From the NCBI GenBank assembly GCA_017506865.1, contig JAFCMP010000016.1, forward strand, positions 248,001-312,000: a stretch of DNA of 64,000 bases. The letters are read 5' to 3'. Source of the DNA: Tribonema minus (Eukaryota > Sar > Xanthophyceae > Tribonematales > Tribonemataceae). This document shows, in pieces, positions 754-32,500 of this stretch; the first letter of the stretch is position 1, and each line of letters starts with the position of its first letter. Position numbers and translations under genes: made by a program. The notes beneath the pieces were generated by a model, which saw only the letters and a list, made by a program, of their open reading frames with translations, did not search any database and had not been told where the DNA came from.

Positions 754-3700
754 CGGTACTTGAATCTGCATGGGAGGTCACCAATCAGGTCCTCGTAGTC
801 AAGCTTGTAGAGCTCATCCAACAGCTTCTCCTTTTCCCCTTCCGTGGGCTCGAGAGCTTCGTCGTCTTCAACCTCATCTTCAACTTCTCCCTGCGCAAAA
901 AGTCAGCAGAAAGGTTCAGTGAGCGATTACCTTTTCAGTGAGTACTTGCAAGTATCCATCAGCAGGTCAGGTGTCGTTACATATCGACATGATGCTAGAT
1001 GCAACAAATGTCAACTGCTCAACTTTGTCGCCAGATAGCTGGCCAAAATACGCTATACGCACCATTCTGGTTTCACACACCAGCAACTGCAACTTGATTG
1101 CACTGTGCAAGCACACGAGCATCATTGACCTGCGATGCAGCTATTCCAGGAATTGGGCGTCACATGTTGAAGCTGAAGTTTTGCTCACCTGCTCATCAGC
1201 GTCGGCCTTCTCGCCGTTGTCTTCTGCAATGAATCGGCAGAGGCAGACACAACAGCATCAAGACCCCACCTGTGTCAGTCAATGTGAGAGAATTGCTACG
1301 TACGATCATTGAATGTGGTCGTGGCATGCTCTGCTATGCAGCATCCAAGCCTTTGTTGTATGTGATGGCGGACGTCCAACTTGACTTCCAAGCGTGCTCT
1401 GACAGCTGTTCCAGATTCCATTCGAGGATAAGGTATGTACAAAGTTGGCAACAGGTCATCTAGTGATGAAAGCGCAGGTACCAGCAACCACTCCCTTGCA
1501 AACAACATGGCTGGAAACGACTGTCAGGTGAAAACAGAGCGATCTGAAGCAGTGACAAACCTGATATTTGCATCATCCTGAGCACTAGGAAAAGAACAAG
1601 GAACACCACAGAGTGCGAGTGTGAAACCTTTCGCACCTGTAGTAGTTGAGCATTTTTCGAAACTACTCATCACCCCCTGTTTTTCATTATCCACCCCCTC
1701 GGGGTCCTCCTCCCCCCCTGCTTCCCCCTCCCCGCCCCCCTGGCTGTGTACATGCACTCGCAAGGACTAAATTACACAGAATAAACGGTTCAAGAGTATG
1801 CGCATCTCAAGCAAGCTGCAACTTGCCTTGATACTCATCATCACCCCCCTGTTCCTCATCATCCACCCCCTCAGGGTCCTCCTCCCCCCCTACACCCCCC
1901 TCCTCGCCCCCCTGTGCAGCCCCCTCTTCGTCCTCCGGAGGCTGCCAACCTTCCTCCGCTGTTTCAGCAAACCACAAGCAAGGGTGAAGAGGACATGGTG
2001 TTAGCAATATAGCATGTGCAGCGTGTGACAGAGACAGGTGACATGATTTGAATGCTGAGGGGAGGAGTAGGGTTGGGATTAGTTGGGATTAAAACTGAGT
2101 GCACCATATGCAGTCGTGGCGACGTGTTTGACACGCCTGAGCCGACTACTAGAGAGCGTGGAGCATTACTTACCCTAACCCTAAGTAGCACTGTAGCATG
2201 ACAGGACAGCAGAATACGGTGCAGGGGGGGGGGGGGGGGGGGGGGCACTCACATTCAAAACAAGCAACAAGCGACGTGAATCCTAAACATTCTACAAGGC
2301 TTTGTGCTGAAACAAACGCACATCATGTGTGCAAACCAGTCGCTTACCAGTGTTATAGTAGCCATCGCCAAATGCTGACGACATCTGCAGAGGAGCAGCC
2401 AGCGACAGCACAGAACTCAGAGTTAAGACGCAGCCAGCCCTTCAGAAGCAGCTGTGTTCAGGTATGGGTAAGTAGGTATGTACGCATCAATGCTCACACG
2501 CAGCAGCGCTCGCACAGAAACGCCAGCGACATCGCACAGGGACAGCCCTGCCGCCGCCCGCATGGGGTATGTAACGATGCACAGGTATGTACACAGATGT
2601 GTCTGATGCAGCGCTCGCATACATCAGTGCTCAGGCAGAGCGTCCGCGCGCATGGGAATGTCAACAGGTCGGCGGTCAGTCATTCGCACACGCTTTGCAG
2701 CGCTGCGGTGCTCACACGCATCAGTGCTCAGGCAACAGTCACACAAGTCAGTGCTCCAGCAGGGGGGTGGGGGGGGTTGGGGTGGGGGAAGGGGGGGGGG
2801 GGGCATGAGACAGTGCTCAGCAGTCCTTGCATACACCAGTGCTCAGAAAAGCTGTCACATGAGTCAGCGCTCGGACAGGGTGACCCATGAGGCAGTGCCC
2901 AGACAGGCCATCCCAACATAGGCATACCAAATAAGGATTCTCAAATGTGGAATCAGCACTTTCCGCAAGCGCATTACATAGTGATATAGCTGCTGTTCCC
3001 ACTGGTTGGGATCAAAACCTAACACTAACCCTCCAACGCGTCCTTGTCTACTTGATCACTTGTGCTGAGTTCTTTAGAACTGACAGTCCTAAAATTTGAA
3101 ACCAGCACCTTCTCCAAGTTCAAGAATACTGTTAAGTTCACCTGCTGATCCCACTGGTTGGGATCGAAGTCCCCTTCCAATGGGCGTCCTTGTCTCCTGT
3201 ATCACTTGCGTGAAAGTTTTCGGTTTCATGTTTTTCAGAAGCAACAGTGCTAAAATGTGAGATCAGCACCTTCCTCAAGTCCAATACATTGAAGTTCACC
3301 TGCTGATCCCACTTACGTCGGGATTGAAGTCCCCTTCCAATGCGTCCTCGTCTACTTGGTCGCAAATTCGAAGGCAGTACCTTCCTTGAGTTCAAAAGAT
3401 TGAAGTTCACCTGCTGATCCCACTGGTCAGGATCAAAGTCCCCTTCCAACGCGTCTTCATCAACTTGGCCGCCACCACTCATGTCCCTGATGGTCTCGAG
3501 GCGGCGCCGAATCTCCTCCCGCTTGATGTTCTTCAAGCGGCGCAGCTCCAACTTCAAGTATTCGAGGTGTGAGCGTAGCGGTTGAGGTTAGTGTATCGTC
3601 AGCGCGGGTGGTGGTTCAAGTCCTTTACACGAGCCCAGTGTATGCACAGATAATGGGTCTACAGCCTACATACTTCACCAGCTTTTTCAACAGCGCCCAA

Positions 3701-29500: not shown

Positions 29501-32500
29501 GTGTGTGTACCGATGAGCATTATCACAGCATTGCGCCACCTCCTCTACTTGCTGAGCAGCAGACATCAAGGTTCGACTAAATCTACGTAGCACCACAGCA
29601 TTGCTCTCGCTAACAACTACAAGTTGGTAAGCAGGGGCCGTGAACAGTACTGTGCAGCTCTGCACCCATTCCCTCTGAGTAGCAATAGCCCCTTCTTCTA
29701 TAAGCCCTTACTTGTGGCACCAAACATTAAGCACAAAGACACACATGACCTACTGATTCACCACATGTTCGACAGTACATTGTCAAATGTACAATGCCGC
29801 AATTCGCGATTGCTGGACAGCAATGATTGCACGGTGCTCCCATGCATTGTGCTTTGATGCGTGATCAGCTGACCTTCACCGTCTTTGCGTGTGACTGTGC
29901 CTGAACAGCGCCAACTTCACCGTCCTTGCCATTATGTCAGTGTCTGAGCGCCTCATTCATCTTTGCCCTCTGTGTGCAACTGTGCTTGAGCAGTGCCAGA
30001 AGCTGGGGCCTCTGGAGAAAATAACGGTGTTCTCGCGCAATCCCATTGGTCCCGTGGTGGTGAAGTTTGGCACCGCATTCGCGTCCGAGCAGTGCATCAA
30101 GAAGATGGATGGGCGCTGGTTTGGAAAACGAAAGTGAGTTTTCAATGACTCCTAATCACTTGAAGTAGATAACGGATCCAACCCTAACACTAGCCCCTTC
30201 AATGTACTCTGAAGCACATGAAGTAGATGGCCAATTTAACCCCCACCCTTGTCTATGCCCTAAGGAAGTGAAAGTGAGGTTCAGCATCCCTAGCGCTAAG
30301 AGAGCAAAAGTGAGTTTCAATGTACTTTAAAGCACTCGAAATAGGCGGTGCAGGGTTAGGCGTGGGGTAGGATTAGGGTTAGACTTGGCTTCAGTGTCAG
30401 GGTTCTGGCAGCAGTGCGTAGCTACTGCGGCACAATGGCAGGTGTGCAGATAAGATTGTGTGGCATGGTCATCGGCCGCAGAGCGTTAACACCAAACGCA
30501 AAAGAGTACATATTGGCTACTTCATTGAAGCACTTGAAGTAGATGACCGATTTCACCCCAACGCTAGGGCTAAGAAAGCGAAAGAGTGTCACCGTACTTT
30601 GAAGCACGTCAAGGTGCTGCAGGGTTTTGAGTGGGGTAGGATTAGGGTTAGGGTTAGGGTTCTGGCGATAATGCATAGCTGTAAGTCGCAATGGCAGATG
30701 TACAAACATGGACGAGGACGTAGGGGGGAATATCGATATGCCATTTGGCGGCGTTGTTTGAGTGGTTGCCAATGAGACACTTTCAAACAGACACATGTAG
30801 ATTCCGCACAGCAAGCTTAGATTTTTATTCATGGGCTTTTTCGCGCCCTGAGCGAGATTCGCCAAGAAGTACAAACAACCTTGTGTTGCACAACGGCCTC
30901 GGTAGCGTTTGGCTTGCAGGGTCGCTTTTGGGCTGAGCGAGGCCCTGACGACTGGCAGTATCACTTCTCTACTAGCACTACGGCTAGGGGTATCACTGCG
31001 CCCGTGGTGTGCCAATGCTCAACCACGGTTGCCCGCTCTCGAAGTCGTTCGGGTCGAGTCTGACACTGTGTCGCCTACTCAGCAGCGGCTCGTCCTGAAC
31101 CAGGCATATCCTACAAGCAGGCAGGCAGCGGCGATGAGATGGCCATTCACATCAACTCCACGCACGGCAGCCTGCACTTTCAAGTACAGCCAGGGCCTCC
31201 ACTGCAACCAACACATCCTGCACAGCGTGCCGGCCAACCCCCATGCCCATCCTGTGCGCAATCCTGATTGAGTTGGCTCAGGCCTGCATGGACATTTCGC
31301 CAGCGACGCTGCAGTTTGTGCGGCTGGGTTCATGAGAAGATTTGATGTCAAAAAGACTTGAAGTTGACAGTCCGCAGGCCAATGCGGAGCATGTGCCGAG
31401 CGCGTGAATTGCCAGTGGCGGCCCAGCAGCTGGCGCACTCCGTAACACTCCCTGCGCTAACGCACTAGGCCGAAGCGCCGTTCAGTACCAATCGCTACGA
31501 CTTGCGCGGCAAGGGCCTGTCTGTTCACTCGCCAGCCGGCAACCGCAGAGGCGGCGATCCCAGTGGGCAGTGCTGACGCCACCGCAGGATCCTCGTGCAG
31601 TCGCTTGAAGAGGAGAGCCGGGGGCTGGTTTTACAGAGCTCCACCAGAAAGGCCAAGGTGCTTGTGGAACTCATGCATGACCTGCACAACACCCTTCAGG
31701 TCACAAGGGCTGCTGTGGGGGTACCACCTTCGCTCAAGCAGCGAACAGGTGCCCCAGCTGTGGCGAGGACAGGCACGCAGCCAACCCTGCCTGCAGCAGT
31801 CACCGCAATGAAATTCAGTCTCTGACGCAGCCAAGACCAGGCGTGTCGAAGGCGCCGTTGTCTCATACACCAATCACGGCGCCGCGATCAGAGGGGAGTG
31901 GGGCGAGGCGGCAACGAACTCCAAGTCTGCTGAGCAGAAAAATTGTCGGAAGGAGGCCAACTGGGCGCAAGGCACAGACGCGCCCGGCGAATACCTGCAG
32001 TCGGTGCGGGACTTTGTGTGCCGCGTCGCTGTCAAAGAGACTCTGTCCAGCCTTGCGCTCGCCCCAGCGCCCAATCAGCAAGAGGTCTACATGCTGGAAA
32101 CGGCAACTGACAAGGGCGCCGACGCGGCTGCCTACAATGCCGTTCTGACGATCTCCAGGGCTGAGTTGGACCGGGCGCCTTCAAGACGCACCTAGGCAGC
32201 AAATGCTCGCAAATCCGCCACCTTTCGTGTGCTTGACAGCGCCCGGGGTGTTGCGTGGCGCAGCATTTCCATCGGCGTTGCTGTACCAGATTTGTGCGCA
32301 TTTGCTGCCTCGAAGGCGCACGCGCTTAACTCAGCCCTGGCGATCTTGAGGACTGCATTGTACACAGCCGCGTCGGCGCGCTTGTCAGTTGCCGTCTGTA
32401 GGAAGTAGACATCTTGCTCATTGGGCGCTGGGGCGAGCGCGAGGTCGGGCAGAGTCTCTTCGACAGCGACGCAGCGCACAACATCTGTGGCGCACCGGCT

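What the first reader, a model, noticed from the sequence alone, without database searches (positions are those of the whole stretch)
754..30680. Exon echoes: almost every intron contains decayed tandem copies of its flanking exon edges with splice sites
In KRI1, copies flank exons 3, 4, 5 (both ends), 6, 7, 8, 9 (both ends) and 11. In HTATSF1 they flank exons 3 (both ends), 6, 7 (both ends), 8, 10 and 11. Each copied unit spans a junction: part of the exon plus neighbouring intron, with the AG or GT kept. Copies become more degraded with distance. Gene models that ignore them are in phase and match the families, so they are unlikely to be needed exons. This points to introns that lengthen by repeated short tandem duplication at exon-intron junctions, a process I do not know as a described genome-wide habit. 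It could also create new alternative exons.
Basis: partly seen in the sequence, partly recalled or inferred. Interest (0 to 1): 0.88.

Follow-up and report, generated by a model that had tools for sequence, protein, structure and literature searches.

The report
Exon-edge tandem arrays in algal introns
In a yellow-green alga, short stretches straddling the border between an exon and an intron have been copied over and over into the intron, where the extra copies decay; the same thing was seen before in lancelets ("mirages"), and it shows one concrete way in which introns get longer.

Summary
The window is from Tribonema minus (Xanthophyceae). The echoes are real: at strict thresholds 13 of 22 tested KRI1/HTATSF1 introns carry copies of a flanking exon edge. 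In 73 introns of 18 genes, 45 of 146 junctions do on the same strand, 1 of 146 on the opposite strand. Of 131 copies, 63 are exon starts lying upstream, 51 exon ends lying downstream, 17 reach neither edge, none is on the wrong side. A young array (97% matches) shows how they begin: a 151-nt unit, 79 exon plus 72 intron, repeated head to tail. Older copies decay without coding constraint; a transcript-derived protein skips them. In a paralogue pair, the gene with 24 echoes has all five shared introns longer than the gene with none.

The kind is already described: lancelet "mirages". New here are the host (a stramenopile), the extent (36 of 73 sampled introns), the gene-by-gene patchiness, and paralogue evidence for intron lengthening. 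Junction arrays exceed a uniform-duplication simulation, so either the conserved exon keeps its array alive or the process favours junctions; this is unresolved. "Almost every intron" and "not described" are too strong.

The parts
754..14205 (-). KRI1 gene, 13 exons, continuing beyond the left edge of the window
   Evidence: exon model (exon 12 end one base off there); hand-joined protein 42% identical over 100% to a Chrysoparadoxa protein with the Kri1 Pfam domains
14588..41113 (+). HTATSF1-like gene, 13 exons; the intron between exons 11 and 12 is 9.97 kb
   Evidence: exons 1-11; exons 12 (40102-40207) and 13 (41078-41113); transcript-derived protein P0002 97% identical over 328 residues
12464..12715 (-). 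three upstream echoes of KRI1 exon 3 start (period about 116)
11122..11900 (-). five upstream echoes of KRI1 exon 4 start, 66-70 nt of exon each, 78-87%
10086..10355 (-). three upstream echoes of KRI1 exon 5 start, 79-92%
9554..9805 (-). two downstream echoes of KRI1 exon 5 end, 77 nt, 81-84%
8973..9005 (-). upstream echo of KRI1 exon 6 start
6856..6992 (-). two downstream echoes of KRI1 exon 7 end
5116..5889 (-). three downstream echoes of KRI1 exon 8 end
3700..3977 (-). two upstream echoes of KRI1 exon 9 start
2990..3363 (-). three downstream echoes of KRI1 exon 9 end
17347..17477 (+). two upstream echoes of HTATSF1 exon 3 start, 97% over 32-34 nt
18077..18358 (+). two downstream echoes of HTATSF1 exon 3 end, 84-88%
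   Evidence: one of them
20444..20503 (+). weak (74%) downstream echo of HTATSF1 exon 5 that does not reach the exon edge
22581..22625 (+). upstream echo of HTATSF1 exon 7 start
22932..22992 (+). downstream echo of HTATSF1 exon 7 end
26997..27038 (+). echo of HTATSF1 exon 8 end, 3.05 kb downstream of the junction
28376..28558 (+). array abutting the acceptor of HTATSF1 exon 10 (82-84%)

Best explanation
The echoes are decaying tandem arrays that span exon/intron boundaries ('mirage'-type minisatellites). Step 1 (shown by young arrays): a stretch of typically 60-190 bp covering an exon edge and adjoining intron is duplicated head to tail at DNA level, on either side of an exon. Step 2 (shown for one gene's transcript): splicing keeps using the site attached to the whole exon, so the extra copy becomes intron. 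Step 3 (shown): the extra copy drifts without coding constraint while the real exon stays conserved, so exon-derived pieces stay recognisable longer than intron-derived ones. Step 4 (inferred): because one member of the array is a conserved exon, homology persists and further duplication or unequal exchange goes on there longer than in intron interiors. This adds copies next to the exon, pushes older ones outward and lengthens the intron. Step 5 (inferred): the first duplications come from ordinary break-repair errors. Why some genes are full of arrays and others have none is not explained.
For: Side rule: of 131 copies, 63 upstream/start, 51 downstream/end, 17 reaching neither edge, 0 wrong side, 0 covering 90% or more of the exon anchor. 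Young array: a cpn60-like gene (cctG) holds 3.5 copies of a 151-nt unit, 97% matches, 79 nt exon + 72 nt intron, head to tail; another gene (cctJ) holds five copies after its exon 4, four of them with 117-118 nt of exon at 93-96%. Neutral decay: 73 echoes, 4359 aligned nt, mismatches at codon positions 1/2/3 = 127/102/232, 8 stops, 38 gaps of which 5 are three bases long; the third-position excess fits silent change in the real exon. Splice dinucleotide identity 92% against exon part 88-89% in 63 copies. Transcript-derived P0002 follows the model across exons 5-11 without an echo. Paralogues cctD/cctJ: 0 against 24 echoes, five shared introns all longer in cctJ (2434 against 6098 nt). Nearer copies better preserved: 21 junctions against 5.
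Against: Intron-derived parts are more diverged than a simple clock predicts: in 14 copies with mean exon-part identity 0.964, intron positions 7-26 are only 0.746 identical (random pairs about 0.55). Copy against copy, the exon-derived part is ahead in 17 of 18 junctions. Homogenisation of exon parts, or constraint, is not excluded. Young arrays are few. Uniform duplication alone does not give the junction excess, and step 4, meant to explain it, was not tested. Array copies are not strictly ordered by age (cctJ exon 4: the third copy is the closest). The on/off pattern between genes has no explanation here.
Confidence: 0.82

Rival explanations
1. Junction- or gene-targeted duplication: something tied to transcription, splicing or chromatin of particular genes makes duplications start at exon/intron junctions.
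For: In 73 introns, 46 arrays include an exon edge and 16 are interior (3 more begin or end at the junction), where uniform placement with age-dependent detection predicts 29% junction arrays. Looking at introns alone, 20 of 51 arrays abut a junction against 17.4% expected, p = 0.0002. Local arrays: 84 in 108.5 kb of genic span against 7 in 40.4 kb of flanks. On/off pattern between genes.
Against: Interior arrays exist as well. Regions whose gene content is unknown are only about twofold poorer in arrays than genic spans: 9 in 22.8 kb of the window's right part, 4 and 5 in 10 kb each of the two neighbouring stretches. The simulations rest on ages (0-0.30 and 0-0.25), unit lengths and an indel rate that I chose; older ages would favour junction arrays. 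Exon-anchored persistence gives the same excess without targeting. No boundary motif stands out.
Confidence: 0.3
2. Uniform, neutral tandem duplication everywhere, filtered only by selection against damage to exons, with no special role of exons.
For: Tandem duplications without a known exon edge occur in the window (20274-20394, 100%; 59056-59239, 98%), and regions of unknown gene content hold arrays, too. Junction-spanning copies are the exon-touching ones that splicing can ignore.
Against: Junction excess; fewer arrays in flanks; gene-to-gene heterogeneity p = 0.0002.
Confidence: 0.2
3. Echoes are functional: alternative exons or decoy splice sites.
For: Splice dinucleotides kept in 92%; exon-derived parts better kept than intron-derived parts, even copy against copy.
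Against: Stops, frameshifts and no coding constraint beyond silent change of the real exon; P0002 skips echoes; no copy covers 90% of an exon anchor.
Confidence: 0.06
4. Introners or another dispersed element family that fills introns.
For: Introns long and repeat-rich.
Against: One 151-base exon-end query of HTATSF1 matches only itself and one neighbouring echo in the 158-Mb assembly; copies come from the adjoining exon of the same gene.
Confidence: 0.02
5. Assembly artefact.
For: None seen; reads were not available.
Against: Copies differ from each other by graded divergence and occur on many contigs.
Confidence: 0.02

Closest known systems
Mirages (mirage minisatellites) of lancelets: Adh3, globins BflGb6/BflGb9, troponin C, PGBD5
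   Same: [quoted passage not shown] PMC3902484 one passage). The original Adh3 paper (Canestro and others 2002) was seen only as a reference; it is not held.
   Different: Here in a stramenopile, at 36 of 73 sampled introns, often as series of decayed copies, and patchy by gene. Length polymorphism, reported in lancelets, is untested here.
Small tandem duplications from repair of breaks with overhangs
   Same: Head-to-tail copies of short segments (PMC8355091, passages).
   Different: That work induced breaks in mammalian cells; the passages seen do not address exon/intron borders. Nearest-copy offsets here are mostly 60-190 nt, with several longer, and arrays often hold more than two copies. 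Border microhomology was not measured here.
Intron gain by tandem genomic duplication (potato RdRp)
   Same: Tandem duplication inside a gene alters its intron-exon structure (PMC4974935, listing and start of abstract only).
   Different: There the duplication makes a new intron; here it mainly enlarges existing ones. One possible gained intron was seen (cctJ intron 6).
Introners
   Same: Genome-wide contribution to intron sequence (PMC9860276, start of abstract only).
   Different: Introners are families of copies spread among genes; echoes are copies of the adjoining exon.

Membership tests
Mirage minisatellites | tandem repeat unit spans an exon/intron boundary | tested here: met
   151-nt unit = 79 exon + 72 intron nt; 86 of 99 copies reach within 5 nt of the exon edge
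Mirage minisatellites | both acceptor and donor boundaries can be duplicated | tested here: met
   24 of 73 acceptor and 21 of 73 donor junctions
Mirage minisatellites | copies often keep AG/GT | tested here: met
   dinucleotide identity 92% in 26 donor and 37 acceptor copies, those of the 99 with E<=1e-8 and reaching the edge
Mirage minisatellites | regular splicing of the mRNA is undisturbed | tested here: met
   for one gene only: transcript-derived protein P0002; its strain or species is not stated
Mirage minisatellites | copy number differs between haplotypes or cells | not testable with these tools
   one assembly only
Mirage minisatellites | concerted evolution inside the array, outer copies excluded | tested here: inconclusive
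   outermost copy is the most diverged in 12 of 20 arrays, chance 5.6; homogenisation not separated from age
Introners | same element family inserted in many genes | tested here: not met
   exon-end query has two matches in the genome, itself and one echo (one query only)
Intron gain by tandem duplication | intron present at a site where relatives have none | tested here: inconclusive
   cctJ intron 6 is absent from cctD and the region is contiguous in cctG; loss in both is possible

The most novel reading that the evidence does not exclude
Tribonema minus has a duplication process that acts on particular genes, as if switched on or off gene by gene, prefers exon/intron junctions, more than doubles the intron content of affected genes and sometimes makes new introns, such as cctJ intron 6, which two paralogues lack and which is full of echoes of both its neighbours.
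Probability: 0.25. Interest if true: 0.75.

Novelty: new member of a known kind. Interest (0 to 1): 0.5.

Why it matters
Where intron length comes from is usually answered with transposons or unspecified indels. Here each added piece carries a label: it is a copy of the neighbouring exon edge, so events can be counted, ordered and roughly dated, and a paralogue without them serves as a stand-in for the before state. Finding the lancelet 'mirage' structure in a yellow-green alga suggests that it is not a quirk of one animal lineage. It may also mislead annotation: the public T. minus protein of HTATSF1 lacks an exon and reads into an intron in this region, and no near-identical KRI1 protein came up (a capped search).

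Tried and rejected
Depth of the exon part (20-120 nt, many at 50-70) looked like a fixed geometry, but copies of one array share a breakpoint and the query ended at 120 nt, so I do not claim it. A boundary motif (GAAGTT/AACTTC type): beside 14% of acceptor and 7% of donor copies against 4% of random intron pieces, few and non-independent; not claimed. Link with interstitial TTAGGG repeats: echo-free myoA has them and echo-rich cctA has none; rejected as a simple rule. Coding constraint in echoes: rejected, although among the 17 copies with 94% identity or more the counts 5/9/29 lean to third positions. Expression level as cause of patchiness: CCT-type genes include both classes, which speaks against it; expression was not measured. 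Literature searches under several wordings: the lancelet globin paper was listed, and its word 'mirages' was seen; the search for that word gave two papers.

Rows dropped and choices made: exon anchors come from Pfam hits. Adaptin hits were not used. A chain step dropped hits; I put four back by hand (cctE, cctF, kinA, kinC) and left one cctH hit out. 73 introns were resolved: 22 in the two window genes (the 9.97-kb and the last HTATSF1 intron were left out) and 51 of 69 elsewhere, a few with low scores. KRI1 exon 12 was entered one base too long and the exon 7 donor is ambiguous by six bases in a GTTAGG repeat; the intron after exon 12 has no echo call, that after exon 7 has two. treat cctD and cctJ with one intron each; their full models came later. 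'Outside' flanks include some probable unannotated exons. cctD is echo-free at the threshold used, but its genic span holds two local arrays, and by eye a faint repeat follows its exon 5. Copies within an array are not independent, and the p-values ignore that.
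Full report
What the window is. The window is positions 248001-312000 of a contig in a 158-Mb assembly; the contig has 508,902 bases. The HTATSF1 product is annotated as JKP88DRAFT_271269 of Tribonema minus on a contig of the same length; the species is a xanthophyte of the stramenopiles. KRI1 lies on the minus strand (754-14205 and beyond the left edge); HTATSF1 on the plus strand from 14588 to a stop ending at 41113, with a 9.97-kb intron before its last two exons.

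Noticed in passing
G000:C516, cctJ intron 6 (L046, sense 9202-9846): An intron absent from the paralogue cctD and not seen in cctG, holding echoes of both flanking exons: possible recent intron gain from a boundary array.
   Followed up: partly
window 19965-27724: The public protein (P0001) leaves out 18 residues at the end of exon 5 and exon 9 of HTATSF1 and reads about 24 intron codons after exon 8; a transcript-derived protein supports the exons instead.
   Followed up: yes
window 754-14205: No near-identical annotated T. minus KRI1 protein came up in the (capped) homology search, so the gene may be unannotated or broken up in the public annotation.
   Followed up: no
window 5462-10626 and elsewhere in the KRI1 introns: Many short interstitial TTAGGG/CCCTAA runs inside introns (5.2 runs of two or more per 10 kb in the KRI1 region); the KRI1 exon 7 donor lies in GTTAGG repeats.
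   Followed up: partly
window 13210, 9882, 1827 (ends of KRI1 exons 2, 5, 11): Three of thirteen KRI1 donors read GC instead of GT in the model.
   Followed up: no
window 34492-39879 and 37325-37947: A repeat pair 5.1 kb apart at 96% and a 312-nt tandem pair at 94% inside the large HTATSF1 intron; perhaps a transposable element.
   Followed up: no
window 54270-61428: Several stretches repeated about 5 kb apart at 70-80% identity, outside the two genes.
   Followed up: no
PF00225 hits G000:C246:700950-701488 and G000:C511:561699-562092: Pfam hits whose last model position (to within one) is repeated by a shorter hit just downstream: probable donor-side echoes in kinesin genes; C246 was not fetched, nor this part of C511.
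   Followed up: no
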